This document shows positions 1-44,676 of a stretch of 45,760 nucleotides of DNA, in pieces. Position numbers and translations under genes: made by a program. The DNA lies in assembly GCA_905235385.1 (NCBI GenBank), contig CAJOLB010000006.1:1-45760 (forward strand), given 5' to 3'. The first letter of the stretch is position 1, and the number at the start of each line of letters is the position of its first letter. Origin of the DNA: an uncultured Alphaproteobacteria bacterium (GTDB lineage Bacteria; Pseudomonadota; Alphaproteobacteria; RF32; CAG-239). Under the pieces are notes generated by a model, which worked only from the letters and a program-made list of their open reading frames with translations, made no database searches and was not told the DNA's origin.

Positions 1-1418
1 ATATCAAACGTCACTTCAATTTGCGGCATACCGCGCGGTGCAGGCGGAATACCGACCAAATCAAATTGACCTAAGAGCTTGTTGTGAGCGGCAATTTCAC
101 GTTCGCCTTGGAACACACGGATCGTCACAGCCGTTTGCCCGTCTTCAGCCGTTGAAAACACTTGAGATTTGCGTGTCGGAATCGTCGTGTTGCGGTCAAT
201 AAGGCGTGTAAACACACCGCCCAATGTTTCAATACCGAGTGATAACGGCGTTACATCAAGAAGCAAAACATCTTTGACATCACCCATCAACACACCGCCT
301 TGAATAGCCGCACCGACGGCCACAACCTCATCAGGGTTAACGCCTTTATGCGGTTCTTTACCGAAAATTTCTTTCACTTTTTCTTGAACCTTCGGCATAC
401 GTGTCATACCGCCGACCAAAATCACTTCGCTGATTTCACTTGCCGACAAACCGGCATCTTTCAAAGCTTTTTTGCAAGGTTCAACCGTTTTATCAATCAA
501 ATCATCGACGAGCGATTCAAGTTTTGCACGCGTCAATTTAATATTAAGGTGTTTCGGACCTGTTGCATCAGCTGTAATAAACGGCAGGTTGACATCTGTT
601 TGTGTCGCAGATGAAAGTTCGATTTTAGCTTTTTCTGCGGCTTCTTTCAAACGTTGCAATGCAAGCCTGTCATTTTTAAGGTCAATACCTGATTCTTTTT
701 TGAATTCTTCGGCGAGGAAGTTAACGATTCTTTGGTCAAAGTCTTCACCGCCCAAGAATGTATCACCGTTTGTTGACTTAACTTCAAACACACCGTCGCC
801 GATTTCCAAAATAGAAATATCAAACGTACCACCGCCAAGGTCATAAACCGCGATTGTACCGCTTGCCTTTTTATCCATACCATAAGCAAGCGCAGCAGCC
901 GTCGGTTCGTTGATAATACGCAAAACATCCAAACCTGCAATTTTGCCGGCATCTTTTGTGGCCTGACGTTGAGAGTCATTAAAATATGCCGGAACAGTAA
1001 TAACCGCTTTTTCAATCGTTTCACCGAGATAACTTTCGGCATATTCCTTAATTTTTTGCAAAACGATAGCTGAAACTTGAGACGGAGCATATTTTTGACC
1101 TTTAACTTCAACCCAAGCATCACCATTATCACCTGAAACAATTTTAAAAGGCGCTGTGGCTTTGTCTTTTTGCACTTCGGCAGAATCAAAACGACGCCCG
1201 ATTAAACGCTTAATCGCAAACAACGTGTTTTCAGGATTTGTCACGGCCTGACGTTTTGCGGCCGCACCGACTAAACGCTCGTTGTCCGTAAACGCTACCA
1301 TTGAAGGCGTTGTACGCGCACCCTCGGAGTTTTCCAAAACCTTTGCATCTTTGCCTTCCATAACAGCAAAGCAGGAGTTTGTCGTGCCAAGGTCAATACC
1401 AATAACTTTATTGCTCAT
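1..1418 (-). CDS. dnaK: Chaperone DnaK (Hsp70), N-terminal part
   Basis: ATP-dependent cytosolic chaperone that folds and refolds proteins with DnaJ and GrpE. Reading the minus strand from 1418 gives the Hsp70 start, with phosphate-loop [10 protein letters not shown] near the N-terminus, [21 protein letters not shown] and the [11 protein letters not shown] motif. The start is preceded by GGAAG. The ORF runs off the left edge of the window after about 472 codons, so the end of the substrate-binding domain and the lid are not seen. A candidate heat-shock promoter lies upstream. Identification is secure; only the length is incomplete. Confidence 0.98.
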
Positions 1419-31534: not shown

Positions 31535-31633
31535 TAATGGGGGTAATCACTTACCCCCTCATCTTACGGCATTCTCAGCCTTATTATATATGCGTTGACC
31601 GTCTAATTAATCTCTGAAAAAAAATCAACACAA
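31531..31633 (-). ncRNA. tracrRNA of the type II-C system
   Basis: The minus strand from about 31633 contains a 24-nt anti-repeat (31594-31617) fully complementary to repeat positions 7-30. A five-base bulge (31589-31593) precedes a six-base lower stem (31583-31588) that pairs with the repeat's GUUAUA. A small nexus stem GGC/GCC (31568-31580) follows, then a GGGGGTAA/TTACCCCC terminator hairpin (31539-31558). The start is estimated from a -10 box TATAAT at 31640-31645 (minus); TTGACA at 31666-31671 is 20 nt away, which is long. Same orientation as the array. Confidence 0.85.
31539..31558. terminator. Shared terminator hairpin of nadE and tracrRNA
   Basis: GGGGGTAA and TTACCCCC form an 8-bp stem with a four-base loop. 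It stands five bases after the nadE stop and ends the tracrRNA on the opposite strand. Confidence 0.75.
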
Positions 31634-31639
31634 TACTTT

Positions 31640-31671
31640 ATTATACTCACATAAAAATCTTGCAATGTCAA
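31640..31671 (-). promoter_or_regulatory. Candidate tracrRNA promoter
   Basis: On the minus strand TTGACA (31666-31671) and TATAAT (31640-31645) are perfect boxes, but with a 20-nt spacer rather than 17. They lie between the anti-repeat and cas9. Confidence 0.5.
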
Positions 31672-31718: not shown

Positions 31719-34700
31719 ATGAAATATCGTTTAGGTTTGGATTTAGGTGTTGGTTCTATTGGGAGCGCTATTGTTGAATTAGATGAAAAAAACAATGTCC
31801 AAAATATTATTGATGCTGGTGTAAGAATTTTCGAAGTTTCAGAAGGGGCTGAAGAAAGACGAATCAAAAGAACTGCTCGCAAAAACCTTATCAGAACACG
31901 CAAACGTTTAGAATTATTGGCTAAAAAGCTATATGAGAATCATTTGTGGGTTAATGAAACTCCTGAAGGTACAGATAAGCTAAAAGCAAAATCCCCTTAT
32001 AAAATCCGTTATGATGCTCTTAATCAAAAATTGGATAATGAAAATTATATCGGACGAGCTCTTCTTCATTTAGCAAAACATCGTGGTGCCGGTTTTGTAT
32101 CTGCTTCTGAAAACACAGAAGAAGAAATCCTTGATGAAGGGGAAAAATCTAAAAAGAAAATGACTTCCTACGAAAAAATGGCAGCTTATCTGAAGCAAAC
32201 ACATTCTCGCACCATAGGCGAATATTTTTATAGGCGCTTAAATGATTCGGATAACAAGGAAAATCACCATATTCGTCAAGGAGCTTACGCTGTCAGCAAA
32301 AATATTGTAGATTATGCTATCCCTCGCTATCTTGTTAAAGAAGAATTCCATAAAATTTGGGATACCCAATCACAATATTTTCCTCAAATGCAAAAACAAG
32401 GTTTAAAAGACGAAATTTATAAAATCCTTTTTTATGAACGCCCTGCTGCCCCATACGCGATTGGCAAATGTATTTATTATAGAGACGAAGACAGACTTGC
32501 AAAAGCACATCCTTTATCAGAAATGCGCCGAATTTATGAGGAGGTTAACAACATCCGCATTTCAACAAATGATATGCCGCAACGACGATTAACTTTAACC
32601 GAGCGAGATAAAATTATCAACGAGCTTTTACTTAAAGGTTATAACGCGGGTAAAATGTCCATCAAAAAATTGCTTGGACTTTCGGGACAAAATAAAATTT
32701 CATTAACGGAAGACAAAACCATTGCTTCATATTTATATTCCCGACCGGAATTTATGGAAATTCCATATTTTCAAAACTTATCAGAAGAGAAACTGGCACA
32801 ACTGATAGAGTTTATTTCAAACCCATTGAACCCAAACGATAAAAACGGCAGACTTTATAATGAAGATGAACTGATTCAAAAACTTAAAAGCATTATCGGC
32901 ACTAATGATGAAGACCAAATCGGAAAATTATTGACTAAATTCCCTAAAAGCAGAGCAATGCTTGGCTTGACAGCCACAAAAACAATTTTAGAGGAACTGA
33001 AAAAAGATGTGTTATCACATCGTGAAGTGACGGACAAATTGAAAGAAAAAGACCCTCATTTTGAAGCTGCAGAAGAAATTGCCCGCGCGATGCAAGGTAA
33101 ATGTAAAGAACTGCCATATTACGGCGTCGTTTTACCAACCGACACACAACCTCTACCACCATTTACCAAAAGAAACATCACCACATTAAGCAAAGATGAA
33201 ATCAATTACGGCAAAATCGCAAACCCTGCCGTGCACATGATTTTAAATCAACTTCGTCTTGTTGTTAATGATATTATCCGAATATATGGTCGCCCCTATG
33301 ACATTAATTTAGAGCTCGGTAGAGATGTTGGGATGTCTACAAAAAAGAAAAATGAATTTGAAAGACAACAAAACCAAAATCAAAAACTTAATGAAGAAGC
33401 TGTAAACTACCTAAAAGATCATCGCCTCTATGTTAATAACACCAATATCTTGAAATATAAACTAGCAAAAGAACAAGGATGGAAAGATGCTTACGACCCA
33501 ACCATTCAAATCCCCCAAAATTTTAGCGGGATGGAAATTGAACACATTATTCCTCAAGCAAAACACGGAACAGATACTTATAACAATTTGTGTTTGGTCT
33601 CGCGCAATGATAATTTAAATAAAAGTGATGATTTTGCTTATGATTATTTAGAAAAAAAATATGCTAATCAGCAGGAGATGCTGAGAGAAGTTTTAAAAAA
33701 TGCACGAGAAAAAATGCCAAACAAAGCATGGCGCTTTGAAGCAGATGCACGAGAAAAATTTGAAGATAACGGAGATGAAGAAGAAACAAATCGTTATTTA
33801 ACAGACACCCGTTATGTTTCCAAAATGGCTGCTCGCTATTTAAGAGTCATTATTGATTGCGATGATAATGATGAAATCATTCATAACCGTATTTTAGCTG
33901 TTAAAGGAAGACAAACTGCAGAGCTCCGAAAACGTTGGAATTTACTTGGTTTAGAATATAATTTGATGGGATTAAATATTCCAAGATATATTTCTTGTTC
34001 ACCTTATTGGACTGAACAAACCACAGGCGAAATTATTGAAGGTGAAAAAAAGCCTGAGATTGATGGAAATTGGCGTTTTTACAATCAAAAGAAAAACAAA
34101 GAGTGGCTTGAAAAACCACGTATTGACCACCGCCATCACGCAATGGATGCTATAACTGTAGCTTGCGCTAATCGCTCACTTATCCAACGCATGGCAAACG
34201 AAACAAACATCAGCCATATTGAAACACCATTACCCCTCACATCAATGCTATCTGTTGGAGCGTTTAGAGAGCACGTAATTGATGTTTTGAAGAACATCAA
34301 TGTTTCTCATAAACCGAACCATAGTAAACAAGGACAATTTCATAAAGAGACAGGACGTATTGTTTTATGCCAAAATCCAGAAGATAAAAATGCTTTGATT
34401 ACTGTTTATTCCCGAAAAATTCTAGGAGTTTTAAAGTCATTCAAAGACATAAACAAACTTTTAATTCCAGAAACAATAAAAGATGAATGGCATCCTGATA
34501 TTAAAAAACATAAAGAAGCTCAAGCTAAATTAGCAAAAGATTTTGAATTATATATCAATACAGCAGAACAGATTTTGATTGCTGAAAACGAACAAGCTGT
34601 TGCTGACGGAAAAAAAGAAATAAAAATCACGGAAACCCGTATTTTAAACAAAGCCTTTAGAATCATCCAAGAAAAGAATTTATGGAGTGGTGATAAGTTT

Positions 34701-35198
34701 AAATGTTATGAAAACAACTCTTCTCTCGTATTTATTCCCAAACATAATTTAGCATATGAAGGACGGAACAATCACTGCGTTGATTTCTTTGAAAAAGATG
34801 GAAAAGTCGGATGGGAAGTGATTAAACGTTTTGACGTCAATCAGCCTGATTTTATTCCTCAATGGAAGCAGGAAGGCGGTAAAATCATTTGGTCTGCTCA
34901 ACAAGGAGATATGCTTGAGTTGAACACACCGGATGAATGGAAAGGATATACCGATAAGCCAAGATGTTTAGCAAGAGTTAAAAAGTTTAGCAATGGAAAA
35001 TTTAATATTGATTATATCTCAGATGCCAGAATGACTTCCCCTAAAGATAAAAATTTGAAATATATGTTTATCAATACTTTAGAAAGAGGACTTATCTTTT
35101 TAACCAAAAACAAAGCCCGTAAAATAGAATTAACACCTTTCGGCAAAATCAAAAAGAAGCACAAGGCGCTTTGGGATGGCAAGAAGACAGCGGCTTAA
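31719..35198 (+). CDS. cas9: CRISPR-associated endonuclease Cas9 (type II-C)
   Basis: A 1159-residue RNA-guided DNA endonuclease. RuvC-I starts the protein (LGLD8LGVGSIG), the arginine-rich bridge helix follows (RRIKRTARKN onwards), RuvC-II has NLE532LGRDVG, the HNH centre is GMEIEH609IIPQ with NLCLVSRNDN, and RuvC-III has RHH807AMD810A. All catalytic residues are present. Length and the absence of csn2 or cas4 fit subtype II-C. ATG 31719 follows TAGGAG; the frame begins at 31689 without support. cas2 overlaps its end. PAM specificity cannot be read from the sequence. Confidence 0.97.
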   Translation: MKYRLGLDLGVGSIGSAIVELDEKNNVQNIIDAGVRIFEVSEGAEERRIKRTARKNLIRTRKRLELLAKKLYENHLWVNETPEGTDKLKAKSPYKIRYDALNQKLDNENYIGRALLHLAKHRGAGFVSASENTEEEILDEGEKSKKKMTSYEKMAAYLKQTHSRTIGEYFYRRLNDSDNKENHHIRQGAYAVSKNIVDYAIPRYLVKEEFHKIWDTQSQYFPQMQKQGLKDEIYKILFYERPAAPYAIGKCIYYRDEDRLAKAHPLSEMRRIYEEVNNIRISTNDMPQRRLTLTERDKIINELLLKGYNAGKMSIKKLLGLSGQNKISLTEDKTIASYLYSRPEFMEIPYFQNLSEEKLAQLIEFISNPLNPNDKNGRLYNEDELIQKLKSIIGTNDEDQIGKLLTKFPKSRAMLGLTATKTILEELKKDVLSHREVTDKLKEKDPHFEAAEEIARAMQGKCKELPYYGVVLPTDTQPLPPFTKRNITTLSKDEINYGKIANPAVHMILNQLRLVVNDIIRIYGRPYDINLELGRDVGMSTKKKNEFERQQNQNQKLNEEAVNYLKDHRLYVNNTNILKYKLAKEQGWKDAYDPTIQIPQNFSGMEIEHIIPQAKHGTDTYNNLCLVSRNDNLNKSDDFAYDYLEKKYANQQEMLREVLKNAREKMPNKAWRFEADAREKFEDNGDEEETNRYLTDTRYVSKMAARYLRVIIDCDDNDEIIHNRILAVKGRQTAELRKRWNLLGLEYNLMGLNIPRYISCSPYWTEQTTGEIIEGEKKPEIDGNWRFYNQKKNKEWLEKPRIDHRHHAMDAITVACANRSLIQRMANETNISHIETPLPLTSMLSVGAFREHVIDVLKNINVSHKPNHSKQGQFHKETGRIVLCQNPEDKNALITVYSRKILGVLKSFKDINKLLIPETIKDEWHPDIKKHKEAQAKLAKDFELYINTAEQILIAENEQAVADGKKEIKITETRILNKAFRIIQEKNLWSGDKFKCYENNSSLVFIPKHNLAYEGRNNHCVDFFEKDGKVGWEVIKRFDVNQPDFIPQWKQEGGKIIWSAQQGDMLELNTPDEWKGYTDKPRCLARVKKFSNGKFNIDYISDARMTSPKDKNLKYMFINTLERGLIFLTKNKARKIELTPFGKIKKKHKALWDGKKTAA

Positions 35199-35538
35199 CA
35201 CACTAACCGGTTGGTCTATGATGTGGATTATCTGTATGTTTGATATCCCTGTCCGCACAAAAAAAGAACAACGTAAAGCCACGCGTTTTCGCAATCTTTT
35301 GCTTGATAATGGCTTTACAATGAAACAATTTTCGGTATATATCAAACCCGTTAAAAGTCTTTCTGTCGGGCAAAATACTTCTAAAAAACTTTCAAAATAC
35401 ATTCCGGAGAACTCCTCTGTCTCATTTTTATATATCACAGATAAGCAATATTTGATGACTGAAAATTATTTAGGAAAGAATTATACTGAAAATGAAGAAT
35501 CGACTCGTGAAAAAAATGGACAATTATTACTCTTTTAA
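35176..35538 (+). CDS. cas2: CRISPR-associated protein Cas2
   Basis: A 120-residue ferredoxin-like protein, half of the Cas1-Cas2 spacer integrase. MMWIICMFDIPVRTKKEQRKA, read from residue 15 (shown in part), has the FDIP strand with its Asp, and FTMKQFSVYIKP follows. The start at 35176 overlaps cas9 by 23 bases; an ATG at 35218 is an alternative, with no clear ribosome binding site for either. It is separated from cas1 by the whole array, which is unusual. Confidence 0.92.
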   Translation: MARRQRLNTLTGWSMMWIICMFDIPVRTKKEQRKATRFRNLLLDNGFTMKQFSVYIKPVKSLSVGQNTSKKLSKYIPENSSVSFLYITDKQYLMTENYLGKNYTENEESTREKNGQLLLF

Positions 35539-35566
35539 TACCTTCAAATAAATGATTTTAAAAAAG

Positions 35567-35610
35567 AAATAAGCCTTAAAAATATCACTATTTCAAAGGC
35601 TTATTTTTTT
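35567..35610. terminator. Bidirectional terminator between cas2 and the array
   Basis: AAATAAGCCTT and AAGGCTTATTT form an 11-bp perfect stem, with T runs on both strands. It ends cas9-cas2 transcripts and would also stop crRNA transcripts from the minus strand. It takes up most of the 75 bases before the first repeat, so any leader here is short. Confidence 0.85.
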
Positions 35611-35613
35611 CAG

Positions 35614-36439
35614 ATTATATCAGAGATTAATTAGACGGTCAACTATAACTTAAAATGTTTGGCTTGCCATCATCGGCTATTATATCAGAGATTAATTAGA
35701 CGGTCAACTATAACAAAGTTCGTGCATATCAGAAGATTATTCGAATTATATCAGAGATTAATTAGACGGTCAACTATAACGACAAGAATTATGTTGAATA
35801 CTTGCGAGAGATTATATCAGAGATTAATTAGACGGTCAACTATAACTAACAAGGATATAATCCACGAAATACAAAAATTATATCAGAGATTAATTAGACG
35901 GTCAACTATAACGCAAAACAGGTATACCCATTCTTAATCGCCATTATATCAGAGATTAATTAGACGGTCAACTATAACTCTTTGGCCAGTCTTCTGATCG
36001 GTATTTCAATTATATCAGAGATTAATTAGACGGTCAACTATAACATTTGTTCAATTTTGGTTTGTGTTTCAGGTATTATATCAGAGATTAATTAGACGGT
36101 CAACTATAACCTTGTTCGATTTTCGTTTGTGTTTCAGGTGATTATATCAGAGATTAATTAGACGGTCAACTATAACTATAGCGAATCGGTTAAAATGTGG
36201 GTGTTATTATATCAGAGATTAATTAGACGGTCAACTATAACCAATCATACGATTTGGATATGTGATAATATATTATATCAGAGATTAATTAGACGGTCAA
36301 CTATAACTATATCTTTTAAAAATTGTAACAAGCTTGTATTATATCAGAGATTAATTAGACGGTCAACTATAACATTCGGTTTTTGTATTTCGCCGTGATT
36401 TTTATTATATCAGAGATTAATTAGACGGTCAACTATAGT
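35614..36439 (-). CRISPR. Type II-C CRISPR array, 13 repeats and 12 spacers
   Basis: Repeats of 36 nt begin at 35614, 35679, 35745, 35811, 35877, 35943, 36009, 36075, 36141, 36206, 36272, 36338 and 36404. Spacers are 30 nt, with two of 29 (35650-35678, 36177-36205). On the minus strand the repeat starts GTTATAG and ends TATAAT, the same layout as Neisseria II-C repeats, and matches the tracrRNA anti-repeat. The repeats are identical except the last (36404-36439), whose outer two bases differ and whose TAG is the cas1 stop. TTGACC and TATAAT in each repeat are 17 nt apart and form a promoter directed into the next spacer. Confidence 0.97.
36404..36432 (-). promoter_or_regulatory. Repeat-embedded promoter (example: cas1-proximal repeat)
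   Basis: On the minus strand the repeat reads TTGACC, 17 nt ending in TGA, then TATAAT: a -35 box, ideal spacing and an extended -10. The same promoter recurs in all 13 repeats. Transcription would begin about seven bases into the next spacer, giving guides of roughly 24 nt without RNase III trimming of the 5' end, as reported for Neisseria meningitidis. Activity is inferred. Confidence 0.75.
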
Positions 36440-37335
36440 ATAATATCAGGATACCTTAACAAAACTCTTTCTTCTTCGAAGCTCTGAACTAATGTATTGA
36501 CAAACTCACACACGGCCTCATTCAAAGGTATTCGCCCTTTTAATGTTTGCATCTGAACAGTAATAATTTGGGCTAAATATCGTTTAATATCAGGCGTCAA
36601 TTCCAACTGTTTTAAATCTATATTTTGAGACAAATCAAAAACAAGTTTATCTGCCAATGGGCGAAAAGGTTCCATTAAATCGTCAATTAAAGGAAGTGTA
36701 TTTGTTTTGGAACGATGCTTAATTCCAAGATATGGAAACAAACCCGCTCCTGCTACAGCACGAGCGACAATAGCTCGTAAAACAATATACACATAATTTA
36801 ATAACATATTGATATCAGGATTAAGACGTTCGCGCACAAATTCCTTACCAAATAACGCCTTAAAATAAATTGCGGCAGCCAAACCCTCTGTATTCGTTGA
36901 ATCATCACTTAAAGTTTCTTTAGATAATTGCTGTAATCGTAAAATATGCGGACTTGAAGAAACACATTCACTTAAAACGATTGATTGATTTGCAATTTTA
37001 TGTTGAACAATACTTTTCCATAGTTGCTTTTGTAATGGTTTAGAAGCCTCAATTTGCGCCCTAACTCGTGGAGCAACAAGCCAATGTCCCACATACGGCA
37101 TAGTTATTGAAGTTGGTAAATAATCTTTTCCGCAACAAATAATACTTGCCCCCTGCTCTGATAAAGCATTGATAATATTTTTAGAAAGAAAAATATCATG
37201 AGCAGATAAAACCAATGATAAAATATTGTCTAAAGCAATATCATTCTTAATATCTTTATTTTCTAGATGTAAAAAGCCCCGATATAAACTAAGAGCATAA
37301 CCATCTTGACTAATTTCAACTATTTGTCTGTCCAT
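36433..37335 (-). CDS. cas1: CRISPR-associated integrase Cas1
   Basis: A 300-residue Cas1, the catalytic subunit of spacer integration. The metal ligands of the family are visible: E150 in NTEGLAAAIYF, H207 in LGIKHRSKTN, and E222 in DDLMEPFRPLADK. The length is usual for type II. The ATG shares a base with the upstream stop (TAATG), so it is coupled to the membrane-protein gene and through it to htpX. Its TAG stop lies within the first repeat of the array. It faces cas9-cas2, unlike the usual cas9-cas1-cas2 order. Confidence 0.95.
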   Translation of the reverse strand: MDRQIVEISQDGYALSLYRGFLHLENKDIKNDIALDNILSLVLSAHDIFLSKNIINALSEQGASIICCGKDYLPTSITMPYVGHWLVAPRVRAQIEASKPLQKQLWKSIVQHKIANQSIVLSECVSSSPHILRLQQLSKETLSDDSTNTEGLAAAIYFKALFGKEFVRERLNPDINMLLNYVYIVLRAIVARAVAGAGLFPYLGIKHRSKTNTLPLIDDLMEPFRPLADKLVFDLSQNIDLKQLELTPDIKRYLAQIITVQMQTLKGRIPLNEAVCEFVNTLVQSFEEERVLLRYPDIIL

Positions 37336-40919: not shown

Positions 40920-43900
40920 TTATTGATTAAGCATACTTATGTGAAGATTTTTCGGTTGTTCGTGATTTTTATGGCTGACGTTAAATTCCGTCGGCTCGGC
41001 TTCAGGCTCTTGGCTCACATCAAATTCCACAGGCTCAGTTTCAGGCTCTTGGCTCACATCAAATTCCACAGGCTCAGTTTCAGGCTCTTGGCTCACATCA
41101 AATTCCGCAGGCTCGGCTTCAGGCTCTTGGCTCACATCAAATTCTTCATCATTGACGGATTTTTGTTCCGTTACTTCGATTTCATTTAATTCCTGAGCTG
41201 CTTTTTGCTGTATATCTTCGTCATCTGAAACGCTTTCGACACCTAAATCTTCAGCTCTTTTTTCGCTGAGTTTATATTCATAATCATCATCAAATTCATT
41301 TAAGTCAAAGAAAGAGGTATCAAAAGATTCTTCATTCCAAGGCTCTTCATCAAGCTCTATTTCTTTTTCCAAATAAACCGAAACATCATCAACAACAACC
41401 TTCTTCAATTCGCCAAGGATTTCACCGTCTTTATTAACAACAAGTCTGTAAGAGCCGTATTTCAAACCTTCCAACACGAAATATCCTTCCGTATCGGCAA
41501 AAGTTGAAACAGCTAGCTCATCATTTTCATCATAAGCGGAAATTTCATAACCGAACATCATCCGATCATATGTATTTTCAAGCCTACCTTCCAAAGCGCC
41601 TTTATGAACGAAATCAATATTCAAATCACGAATTGTTCCCGGTCTTAAAACGACTTTATATTCTTGTTTTTCGGGAGAAAGTGCAATATCCGGCAAAGTT
41701 TCATCATCAATTTGAACAATTGTTTTTTCATAGGTTTGCAAATCAGGCAACAAGACCTTACCTTCTTCATTGGTATAAACTTCTTTTTCCAAACCGTTAG
41801 CGTTCACACCGACACCTTCCAAAGGCTCGCCGTTTTCATCTTTCAATGTGGCATAAACGCTGCCTGTTTCGCCGAAACGAGAGTTACCTGTTGCGAACAG
41901 GTTTAACTTATCGGGTTCTTTGGCGAAGCTGATATTGTATGTTAAATAAGTGCTGATATTTTCGTCTCTGTCTGCCCTCAATGTTAAGGTTAAGCCGCCG
42001 AAATCGAAAACCTTACCGGCGGAAATAGAGATTGAATCCATATCACGTTTCAAATCGCGTGTATATTCAGCCGTGAAATATGTTCTTCGACCGGTGCGCC
42101 AATCGCCCCTCAAACGAAATTCTTTAAATTCCGCATCAGGCTTAACATCATAAGTCAGCCATGCTTCCGAAGAAAACTTGCCCCACCATTTATAAGCGCC
42201 GAACTGAACTTCATCTCTGTCATCACCGCCGTGCGTTGTATGATAATAGGTATTTTCAAGCGTTAAATTGAAACCGTTTCTGACCTGCTTTGAAACACGT
42301 GTAGAAACATCATGAAACTTTTGAGGAGATTCTTCATAACTGCCGAAGCGATAGCTGACATAATACGGCATATTATAAGGAAGCAGACCGCTCAAACGCG
42401 CTTCATATTGATCTTTCATATAATCATTTCCGCGCGAAGACACGGGAGAATGTATTTTATTATATTTATCGGCGGAAGCATAAAGGGTTCCGATATAGAC
42501 ATCACCTTGTGCTTCCAAATGTTGACCTGTTCTGTCTGTGTCTAAATTTTGTTCTAAATTATATTGAAGAGACAAACCGTCAATAGCATATTGCAAACCG
42601 GCCATGCCGAAGTTTTGAACATCATTTTTATCATCATTCGGGGTTTGGGTATATCCGCTCATTAACGTCAAGTTATCGGTTAAACCGTAATAACCCGTCA
42701 TTTCAAGCAAAGATTTTGAAGTTTGACGATCGGGATCTATATCTCTGTGGTCTTCAATTAAATATCTCTCAGGCTGAAAAGCATTAAACGTATAACCGAA
42801 TTCACCTTTTTTAACGGGGCTTGTGCCGGAATAATAACGTTTATATTCGGTTTTTGTTTCACCATACGGACCATAGAACACGAGTTTAAAGGTATTTAAG
42901 CCGTAAGAAACGGGTAAATTTTCAAAATTATATCTGCCGGCAACGCCGTTTTGCCTATATCCCATCAGTTGATCGTTCCAATAAAGCTCAACCTGCCAGC
43001 CTTCTTGAAGCGGACCTGTAATATCAATGGTTTTATCAGCGGATAAGATAAGATCTTTAAAGCTGCTTAAAGTAACGCCTCGTCCGTAGCTTGCATTTGT
43101 GAAATAAGAATTGCTCACCCCTGAAACATCACCGATTTCCATACGTTTCAAATGGAGCGGATTTTCCGGCTCTTCCAAAAACTCACGGCTACCCGTAATA
43201 CGCGCCGTCGGTTTGCGGTCATGATCAGAATCTCCGGACAAATAAGCCGTAACATCAAGTCCTGCGGCAAGTCCCGCAAAGTTCAAAACATAATTATCAC
43301 TATTTGAAGTTGTGCCGTTGCTTGTGTGGTTCCAGCCTTTGCCGAGCGTAACATCCAAAACCGGTGTTCCGAACCAACGATTATCGAAATCATAATCTTT
43401 AAACGAGTCGCGCTGATAACTGTATAAACCGCCGGCTCTGTTTTTTTCCAAATTTTTCTTAATGGTTGTCGGAAAATCCTGAGGCGCATCAACAGTCATA
43501 GACATATTTAAATAATCGATTTCCGTCTTAATACCGAAGACACGTTCCAAAAACGAAGTTGAAACGAAAACGGTATTTTCGATATATTTAATATCATTCG
43601 GCTCCATAGCCTGTTTCACACCGTCGACTTCTATAAAACGATTTTGCAGATCAATAACAACCACGGAAGGCTTAAGCGCCCAAGAGATTTTATAAAGCGA
43701 GCCTTCTTTTTCAACCTTAAAACCCGTATATGACACAAGCTGTGGCAAAGATATAAAATCTTTGCCATTCTTCTCATAAACATAAGCATAATCTTCTAAG
43801 GTATAATTTTGAATTCTCGGCTCAAGGATAAGAAGTCCGTCGCCGCCATATTCAAAATCTTGAGCATACGCCGCCGTAGAAACAAAAGCGAAGCATGCCC

Positions 43901-43958
43901 AAACAAAAACCTTATATATCAAGCTTTTGTTTAAGTATTTCCTCCTTTGTTCTTGCAT
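40920..43958 (-). CDS. Outer-membrane usher of a chaperone/usher pilus, with a repetitive tail
   Basis: A 1012-residue protein with a long signal peptide (cleavage after AYA near residue 32). The central region resembles fimbrial ushers: LEEPENPLHLKRMEIGD, GRGVTLSSF, and PVSYGLNTFKLVFYGPYGE, followed by many aromatic beta strands of an outer-membrane barrel. Carboxypeptidase-like plug domains follow (DENGEPLEGVGVNANG, TFADTEGYFVLEGL). The end carries four 13-residue acidic repeats EFDVSQEPE(A/T)EP, unusual for an usher. It overlaps the chaperone gene by 47 bases. It exports and assembles pilus subunits. Confidence 0.85.
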   Translation of the reverse strand: MQEQRRKYLNKSLIYKVFVWACFAFVSTAAYAQDFEYGGDGLLILEPRIQNYTLEDYAYVYEKNGKDFISLPQLVSYTGFKVEKEGSLYKISWALKPSVVVIDLQNRFIEVDGVKQAMEPNDIKYIENTVFVSTSFLERVFGIKTEIDYLNMSMTVDAPQDFPTTIKKNLEKNRAGGLYSYQRDSFKDYDFDNRWFGTPVLDVTLGKGWNHTSNGTTSNSDNYVLNFAGLAAGLDVTAYLSGDSDHDRKPTARITGSREFLEEPENPLHLKRMEIGDVSGVSNSYFTNASYGRGVTLSSFKDLILSADKTIDITGPLQEGWQVELYWNDQLMGYRQNGVAGRYNFENLPVSYGLNTFKLVFYGPYGETKTEYKRYYSGTSPVKKGEFGYTFNAFQPERYLIEDHRDIDPDRQTSKSLLEMTGYYGLTDNLTLMSGYTQTPNDDKNDVQNFGMAGLQYAIDGLSLQYNLEQNLDTDRTGQHLEAQGDVYIGTLYASADKYNKIHSPVSSRGNDYMKDQYEARLSGLLPYNMPYYVSYRFGSYEESPQKFHDVSTRVSKQVRNGFNLTLENTYYHTTHGGDDRDEVQFGAYKWWGKFSSEAWLTYDVKPDAEFKEFRLRGDWRTGRRTYFTAEYTRDLKRDMDSISISAGKVFDFGGLTLTLRADRDENISTYLTYNISFAKEPDKLNLFATGNSRFGETGSVYATLKDENGEPLEGVGVNANGLEKEVYTNEEGKVLLPDLQTYEKTIVQIDDETLPDIALSPEKQEYKVVLRPGTIRDLNIDFVHKGALEGRLENTYDRMMFGYEISAYDENDELAVSTFADTEGYFVLEGLKYGSYRLVVNKDGEILGELKKVVVDDVSVYLEKEIELDEEPWNEESFDTSFFDLNEFDDDYEYKLSEKRAEDLGVESVSDDEDIQQKAAQELNEIEVTEQKSVNDEEFDVSQEPEAEPAEFDVSQEPETEPVEFDVSQEPETEPVEFDVSQEPEAEPTEFNVSHKNHEQPKNLHISMLNQ
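40983..41138 (-). repeat. Four 39-bp tandem repeats in the usher 3' end
   Basis: Units at 40983, 41022, 41061 and 41100, each 39 bp and encoding a 13-residue EFDVSQEPE(A/T)EP-type unit. Units 2 and 3 are identical; the outer ones differ at a few positions. In-frame length suits copy-number variation without frame loss. Confidence 0.9.
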
Positions 43959-44676
43959 CTTCCAACTTCAAAATTGTTCCTGAAAAATTACCGTCAACTT
44001 TCACATTAACAGTGGTTTCGCTGTTAGTGGTATAAATTTTAACTGAATCCAAACGACCGAGTTCCTTATTATTTGCATCTAAAACAACCAAATTCACGCG
44101 TGAAGATTTGTTGCCCAAACGTTTTAAGGTAACCGAAAGAGTGTCATTATTCAGTTTTTTATATGAAACGACTTGCGTTTTGCTGACTAAATTATCGCCT
44201 TTTTCAATGGTAACGGGAATTGTCACGGCAAAAAGCGGCGTTAAAGAAATCGAAACGGTTTCTTCGTCGCCGGCATCTTTTTTGGCGGGCTCACCCAAAT
44301 TGACTTCTTGAATTTTTAAGTGAGAAACATATTCCCCGTCTTTAAGCTCGTTCAAACCTCTGCGTGAAACATTGATTGTTTGAACCTCACGCGGATTTAA
44401 GCGAAATTGTCTCGGTGAAAAGACCAGATATTTTCTTGCATACGGTCCGTCATCGGTTTCAACCTCGGTTAATTTGCCGTTTTTATCTTGATTAAAGTTC
44501 ACCAAGCTCACACGATAAACCTGAGGCTTATCAGATGTATTGATAATACGCACCGTCTGAACGCGCTTGCGGCCTTTAGCTTCAAAATCCACACTATATG
44601 GATAGATTGAAATATTTGCTTGTGCGCTGATGGCATAAAGCAAAATCAAAGAAAATATCAAAAGCTTTTTAATCAT
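43912..44676 (-). CDS. Periplasmic pilus chaperone (PapD-like)
   Basis: A 254-residue protein with a signal peptide (ending SAQA, residue 20). The mature part has the PapD-like immunoglobulin fold: ISIYPYSVDFEAKGRKRVQTVRI (shown in part), NTSDKPQVYRV, YLVFSPRQFRLNPREVQTINVSR, and VSISLTPLFAVTIPV. It would bind pilin subunits and deliver them to the usher. The ribosome binding site is AAGGAAG. It lies between the subunit-like gene and the usher. Confidence 0.88.
   Translation of the reverse strand: MIKKLLIFSLILLYAISAQANISIYPYSVDFEAKGRKRVQTVRIINTSDKPQVYRVSLVNFNQDKNGKLTEVETDDGPYARKYLVFSPRQFRLNPREVQTINVSRRGLNELKDGEYVSHLKIQEVNLGEPAKKDAGDEETVSISLTPLFAVTIPVTIEKGDNLVSKTQVVSYKKLNNDTLSVTLKRLGNKSSRVNLVVLDANNKELGRLDSVKIYTTNSETTVNVKVDGNFSGTILKLEDARTKEEILKQKLDI

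What the first reader, a model, noticed from the sequence alone, without database searches (positions are those of the whole stretch)
35614..36439. Every CRISPR repeat carries a complete, near-consensus sigma70 promoter
On the minus strand each 36-nt repeat is GTTATAG + TTGACC + 17 nt + TATAAT, with TG one base before the -10 (extended -10). Both boxes and the ideal spacing are inside the repeat and end exactly at the spacer. Neisseria type II-C repeats are known to have an embedded extended -10; here a strong -35 is also present, so 13 promoters point in the same direction. Each crRNA would start about seven bases into the spacer.
Basis: partly seen in the sequence, partly recalled or inferred. 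Interest (0 to 1): 0.75.

Follow-up and report, generated by a model that had tools for sequence, protein, structure and literature searches.

The report
CRISPR repeats carrying full sigma70 promoters
In this gut-type alphaproteobacterium every repeat of a Cas9 CRISPR array looks like a complete bacterial promoter, so each guide RNA is probably switched on separately; per-repeat promoters are already known in this CRISPR subtype, and the new part is that the second promoter box (-35) is also present and doubles as the sequence that pairs with the tracrRNA.

Summary
All 13 repeats carry TTGACC-17-TATAAT with TG one base before the -10, on the minus strand. The locus is type II-C: cas9 and cas2 (+), array and cas1 (-), with a tracrRNA at 31535-31650 (-). 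Its anti-repeat confirms that crRNAs are read from the strand that carries the promoters.

Per-repeat promoters and 3'-end spacer acquisition are published type II-C features (PMC3656092, PMC12080349, PMC12638026). The -35 is the less usual part. It lies wholly inside the tracrRNA-pairing segment, so pairing could also conserve it. The -10 is unpaired. In 14 distinct repeats of the same Cas9 branch, TTGAC, TG and the TA of the -10 never vary, while the promoter spacer and the three middle -10 bases do; the perfect TATAAT is particular to this genome. A -35 of at least 5/6 recurs in 7 of 35 repeat groups, against 0.75 expected, and in Treponema repeats without a TG extension.

Best reading: a real full sigma70 promoter per repeat, with a dual-purpose -35. 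No transcript data exist. Read-through from cas1 is not excluded.

The parts
35614..36439 (-). CRISPR array: 13 repeats of 36 nt, 12 spacers of 29-30 nt; each repeat = 7 nt + TTGACC + 17 nt + TATAAT
36404..36439 (-). outermost (oldest, 5') repeat; starts AC instead of GT; promoter boxes intact; cas1 stop codon lies inside it
35614..35649 (-). last (3', youngest) repeat; its promoter faces the terminator hairpin, no spacer follows
35563..35610 (.). hairpin with T runs on both sides, just after the last repeat; bidirectional terminator and conserved acquisition-end (leader) flank; stem changes are compensated across relatives
31535..31650 (-). tracrRNA gene (5' end approximate); anti-repeat 31594-31617 is an exact complement of repeat positions 7-30; nexus and GGGGGTAA..TTACCCCC terminator follow
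31594..31617 (-). anti-repeat: pairs with the -35 hexamer and promoter spacer of the repeat, not with the -10
31666..31671 (-). TTGACA upstream of the tracrRNA; TTGAC[AT] is present at this place in 18 of 18 related loci
31719..35198 (+). cas9 (1159 aa from the ATG preceded by GGAG); RuvC_III and HNH domains
35176..35538 (+). cas2 (type II)
36433..37335 (-). cas1 (type II / NMENI), upstream of the array on the crRNA strand, separated from cas9-cas2

Best explanation
This is a type II-C CRISPR-Cas9 locus in which every repeat is at once a full sigma70 promoter and a tracrRNA-pairing element. RNA polymerase would bind TTGACC / TG / TATAAT in a repeat and start about 5-7 nt into the next spacer. 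The primary transcript would then already have the mature 5' end (about 24-26 nt of guide). The following repeat pairs with the tracrRNA and is cut by RNase III to make the 3' end. New spacers enter at the 3' (cas2-side) end, where a hairpin stops transcription. The outermost repeat next to cas1 is the oldest and has no job except to start the first crRNA. SHOWN by sequence: repeat anatomy, strand, tracrRNA pairing, terminator, polarity, conservation. INFERRED from C. jejuni and N. meningitidis: transcription start sites, RNase III processing, function.
For: The anti-repeat and tracrRNA tail fix the crRNA strand as the promoter strand. In 14 distinct repeats of this Cas9 branch, positions 8-12 (TTGAC), 28-29 (TG) and 31-32 (TA) are invariant and 36 is T in 11; variation falls in the promoter spacer and in -10 positions 33-35, which matches sigma70 base importance. 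In the oldest repeat, freed from crRNA 3'-end duty, the TG and -10 persist (3-5% mismatches) while the first 13 nt erode. There is no leader upstream: degenerate repeats occur only at the 5' end and the conserved flank lies at the 3' end. At least 5/6 -35 at the right spacing occurs in 7 of 35 Pseudomonadota repeat groups (0.75 expected, P about 1e-4), including 4 of 5 groups with perfect TATAAT. Treponema repeats keep TTGAC and TATAAT at 16 nt without a TG extension, while positions 14-18 vary. In L084 and L090 the first two T of the -35 are unpaired with the tracrRNA yet kept. The tracrRNA's own -35 is TTGAC in 18/18 loci, and RpoD has the usual 2.4 and 4.2 sequences. Experimental precedent in C. 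jejuni: PMC3656092.
Against: No RNA data exist. The -35 lies inside the repeat:anti-repeat duplex and changes together with it (TTGACT with GACAGTC in L037 and L046), so pairing alone could keep it. In the outermost repeat the -35 hexamer erodes (23% mismatches) almost as much as the preceding 7 nt (34%), so it is not strictly required. The -10 middle bases drift in sister genomes, for example TATGCT. Other type II-C repeats in the same family lack a -35 (GTTATAGCTTCC..). Match to TTGACA is also fairly high at repeat position 2, which has no promoter spacing. The repeat groups are not fully independent.
Confidence: 0.6

Rival explanations
1. Only the extended -10 (TG + TATAAT) works as the promoter, as in Neisseria and Campylobacter. 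The TTGACC box is conserved because it pairs with the tracrRNA and is handled by Cas9, and its promoter-like sequence and spacing are incidental.
For: The -35 is fully paired in the window and varies with compensation. The whole of repeat positions 1-30 is strongly conserved, not only TTGAC. The -35 erodes in the oldest repeat while the -10 persists. Repeats without any -35 exist in the same family and in Neisseria.
Against: TTGAC at 16-17 nt recurs well above chance in other repeat groups. In Treponema it coexists with a plain, non-extended -10. The first T's are unpaired in L084 and L090.
Confidence: 0.25
2. The array is transcribed mainly as one long precursor by read-through from the cas1 operon, whose stop codon lies inside the first repeat with no terminator between; repeat promoters are weak or minor.
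For: cas1 and two upstream genes lie head-to-tail on the same strand, with cas1 running into the outermost repeat.
Against: Near-consensus promoters sit in every repeat. The outermost repeat keeps its -10 although it has no upstream spacer. Type II-C precedents start inside spacers (PMC3656092).
Confidence: 0.11
3. Chance or composition: an A+T-rich repeat happens to resemble a promoter, copied 13 times by array growth.
For: One repeat copied 13 times is one observation, not 13; TATAAT-like words are common in 36% GC DNA.
Against: 49 in 100,000 shuffles of the repeat; recurrence in other repeat groups and other phyla; conservation at promoter-critical positions.
Confidence: 0.04

Closest known systems
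Campylobacter jejuni type II-C array with a promoter in each repeat (Dugar et al. 2013, PMC3656092)
   Same: 36-nt repeat ending in an extended -10; crRNAs start inside the spacer (position 5); tracrRNA pairing and RNase III make the 3' end; three cas genes only
   Different: C. jejuni repeats have an extended -10 (GGTAAAAT) and the passages read name no -35 in the repeat; here TTGACC is present at the ideal 17 nt
Neisseria meningitidis type II-C (Zhang et al. 2013; paper not held here, recalled; the repeat recalled for Neisseria is seen in L119)
   Same: 36-nt repeat, about 30-nt spacers, TG + TACAAT at the repeat end, array opposed to cas9-cas1-cas2
   Different: that repeat has CTCCCT (2/6) at the -35 place; cas1 lies between cas9 and cas2 there, but beyond the array here
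Flavobacterium columnare / F. psychrophilum II-C repeats with a TTG motif about 33-35 bp upstream of the spacer (PMC8092290, PMC10309648)
   Same: a -35/-33-type element proposed inside the repeat, transcription toward the variable end
   Different: Bacteroidetes promoter type; only the -33 motif was proposed, not a TTGAC/TATAAT pair
Extra-repeat mutation in II-C arrays (Feussner et al. 2025, PMC12080349)
   Same: oldest 5' repeat mutated mostly in its first 15 nt and thought to be kept as promoter; the same pattern is seen in 13 loci here
   Different: the window's own extra repeat has only two changes and no terminator upstream

Membership tests
Type II-C CRISPR-Cas | cas9 with RuvC and HNH domains | tested here: met
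   TIGR01865 468 bits; RuvC_III and HNH
Type II-C CRISPR-Cas | cas1 and cas2 of type II, no csn2 (II-A) or cas4 (II-B) | tested here: met
   cas1 TIGR03639, cas2 TIGR01573; the two genes upstream of cas1 and the gene before cas9 give no defence-family match; genes farther away were not scanned
Type II-C CRISPR-Cas | tracrRNA with anti-repeat, nexus and terminator | tested here: met
Type II-C CRISPR-Cas | 36-nt repeats starting GTT, spacers about 30 nt | tested here: met
Type II-C CRISPR-Cas | usual gene order cas9-cas1-cas2 | tested here: not met
   order here and in the same-branch relatives with all parts on the contig is cas9-cas2-array-cas1 with cas1 inverted; order is typical rather than defining
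II-C arrays with repeat-embedded promoters | extended -10 at the 3' end of every repeat, on the crRNA strand | tested here: met
II-C arrays with repeat-embedded promoters | primary transcription start inside each spacer | not testable with these tools
   needs 5'-end RNA sequencing
II-C arrays with repeat-embedded promoters | spacer acquisition at the 3' end (degenerate repeats at the 5' end only) | tested here: met
   14 loci: degenerate repeats only 5' (13 of them), conserved hairpin flank only 3'; indirect, acquisition itself not observed
sigma70 promoter | TTGACA and TATAAT hexamers 16-18 nt apart | tested here: met
   11/12 plus TG, 17 nt
sigma70 promoter | promoter activity dependent on both boxes | not testable with these tools
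   reporter assay needed

The most novel reading that the evidence does not exclude
A branch of type II-C systems spread over gut Alphaproteobacteria and Treponema uses full -35/-10 promoters in every repeat, with the -35 under double selection, as sigma factor contact in DNA and as guide:tracrRNA stem in RNA. Newest spacers at the 3' end would receive transcription from every upstream repeat as well as their own.
Probability: 0.5. Interest if true: 0.45.

Novelty: new variant of a known kind. Interest (0 to 1): 0.36.

Why it matters
It would show that type II-C repeats can hold a whole strong promoter rather than only an extended -10. It would also be a clean case of one hexamer serving both transcription initiation and RNA pairing, and it offers compact self-promoting guide units for Cas9 arrays. 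It further suggests a simple expression order: transcripts from all older repeats read toward the newest spacers.

Tried and rejected
Three exact-match scans of viral contigs for window spacers, including a degenerate pattern covering two near-identical spacers, found no protospacer, so no PAM could be read. Orientation therefore rests on the tracrRNA and the array polarity. Rfam gave only a tRNA in the window. Repeat L046/L162 was first misoriented because it begins GTTATA on both strands; this was corrected before the final count. A single-linkage clustering merged unrelated repeats and was replaced by founder clustering at 78%. The plus strand was considered as the crRNA strand and rejected: the reverse-oriented repeat (L046 as first read) has only 3/6 for a -35, and the tracrRNA tail fixes the minus strand. 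Zhang et al. 2013 was not held. Literature searches for a described -35 inside alphaproteobacterial repeats found none, but the library is open-access only.

Full report
CHECK OF THE OBSERVATION. The minus strand of 35614-36439 holds 13 repeats of 36 nt. Twelve are identical (GTTATAGTTGACCGTCTAATTAATCTCTGATATAAT) and the outermost starts AC instead of GT. Each contains TTGACC, 17 nt, TATAAT, with TGA directly before the -10: 11 of 12 hexamer positions plus the TG extension. The exact pattern is expected 0.02 times in the window and found 13 times. As the 13 are copies of one unit, the fairer test is a shuffle of the repeat: 49 of 100,000 dinucleotide shuffles hold a promoter this good. In the 1.33-Mb genome, 13 of 21 TTGAC-16..18-TATAAT sites are these repeats. 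There are 12 spacers; the thirteenth promoter reads into a terminator.

WHAT THE LOCUS IS. cas9 (31719-35198, +), cas2 (35176-35538, +) and cas1 (36433-37335, -) are confident family matches, and the nearest neighbouring genes match no defence family. A tracrRNA gene lies before cas9 on the minus strand. Its 24-nt anti-repeat is the exact complement of repeat positions 7-30, followed by UAUAAU that closes a lower stem with GUUAUA across a GCAUA bulge, a nexus hairpin and a strong terminator. This makes it type II-C and sets the crRNA strand as the minus strand, the strand of the promoters. Named relatives with 63-72% identical Cas9 are mostly uncultured gut Alphaproteobacteria, including Azospirillum sp. 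CAG:239.

POLARITY. In 14 loci of the same branch the sequence just after the last repeat is a conserved hairpin (for example AACGCCTTGAAA..TTTCAAGGCGTT) whose arms change together; in the window it is a terminator on both strands. Degenerate repeats occur only at the other end, next to cas1 (13 loci, none at the 3' end). New spacers therefore probably enter at the 3' end and there is no leader promoter upstream. Both are published type II-C traits (PMC12638026; PMC12080349).

THE -10. It lies outside the tracrRNA duplex (positions 31-36), so RNA pairing cannot explain it here. In 14 distinct repeats of the branch (Cas9 51-72% identical to the window's), TG (28-29) and TA (31-32) never change and the last T is kept in 11. 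Positions 33-35 vary freely: TATAAT, TATGCT, TATGTT, TACATT, TATAGT and others. These are the less constrained -10 positions (general knowledge). The perfect TATAAT is thus a property of this genome rather than of the branch. In the outermost repeat, which has no upstream spacer and so no crRNA 3'-end duty, TG and -10 stay at 3-5% mismatches while positions 1-7 reach 34%. Feussner et al. saw the same tendency and suggested a retained promoter role.

THE -35. TTGAC (positions 8-12) is invariant in the 14 repeats, while 8 of the 15 positions 13-27 vary. But it is fully paired with the tracrRNA, and the sixth base changes with a compensating anti-repeat change (TTGACT with GACAGTC, L037 and L046). 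So conservation alone does not prove a -35. Four further facts favour it. First, among 70 distinct Pseudomonadota repeats in 35 groups, 7 groups have at least 5/6 -35 at promoter spacing against 0.75 expected (P about 1e-4), and 4 of the 5 groups with perfect TATAAT are among them. Second, Treponema repeats such as GTTGCAGGTTGACCGGACAAATTAATCAGTTATAAT carry TTGAC-16-TATAAT without TG; TTGAC and TATAAT are invariant in 8 distinct repeats while positions 14-18 vary. Third, in L084 and L090 the first two T of the -35 are predicted unpaired in the repeat:tracrRNA duplex. Fourth, the tracrRNA's own upstream element is TTGAC[AT] in 18 of 18 loci, and the genome has an RpoD with ordinary region 2.4 and 4.2 sequences. 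Against: the -35 hexamer is eroded in outermost repeats (23% mismatches), some family repeats have none, and repeat position 2 also resembles TTGACA without promoter spacing.

MECHANISM. Most likely each repeat recruits the main RNA polymerase, starts RNA 5-7 nt into the next spacer (24-26 nt guide), and the next repeat supplies the tracrRNA-pairing 3' part. The start position and processing are taken from C. jejuni (PMC3656092), not shown here. Transcripts from older repeats would run on toward the 3' hairpin, so the newest spacers should be covered by the most promoters; this is inference. Read-through from cas1, whose stop codon lies in the first repeat, is possible in addition. I put about 0.85 on per-repeat promoter activity of some kind (0.6 with a working -35, 0.25 with the extended -10 alone).

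NOVELTY. Per-repeat promoters and 3' acquisition are known. A TTG motif at about -33 has been proposed for Flavobacterium II-C repeats (PMC8092290; PMC10309648). I found no report of a full -35/-10 pair in alphaproteobacterial or Treponema repeats in the open-access library, which is a limited search. I rate it a new variant of a known kind, of modest interest.

Noticed in passing
window 35176-37335; L034-L046, L151, L156, L157, L160: In this Cas9 branch cas1 is cut off from cas9-cas2: the order is cas9>, cas2>, array<, cas1<, whereas the other II-C loci looked at here are cas9>cas1>cas2>array<. In a Micavibrio relative (L166) cas1 precedes cas9.
   Followed up: partly
window 36045-36074 and 36111-36140: Two neighbouring spacers are variants of one sequence (CACCTGAAACACAAACGAAAATCGAACAAG / ACCTGAAACACAAACCAAAATTGAACAAAT), offset by one base, as if taken twice from related elements. 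No protospacer found in viral contigs.
   Followed up: partly
window 35563-35610; L034-L046: The hairpin at the acquisition end is conserved with compensating stem changes and has T runs on both sides; it may serve as leader for integration as well as terminator for cas2 and array.
   Followed up: partly
L035 7020-7650: Repeat variants sit in blocks: three older repeats have G14, seven younger ones A14, and the two degenerate 5' copies end in CT instead of TA, a visible record of repeat change over time.
   Followed up: no
window 40920-43958 (-): Large outer-membrane-like protein (Cu_amine_oxidN1 and CarboxypepD_reg domains, C-terminal repeat of about EFDVSQEPETEPV) next to a PapD-like chaperone (43912-44676); possibly an unusual chaperone-usher fimbria locus.
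   Followed up: no
loci L034-L066 of the same family: The same bacterial family carries at least three unrelated II-C repeat types (GTTATAGTTGACC.., GTTGCGACTWGAC.., GTTATAGCTTCC..), and one genome (G071) has two Cas9 types, which suggests frequent exchange of type II-C systems.
   Followed up: no
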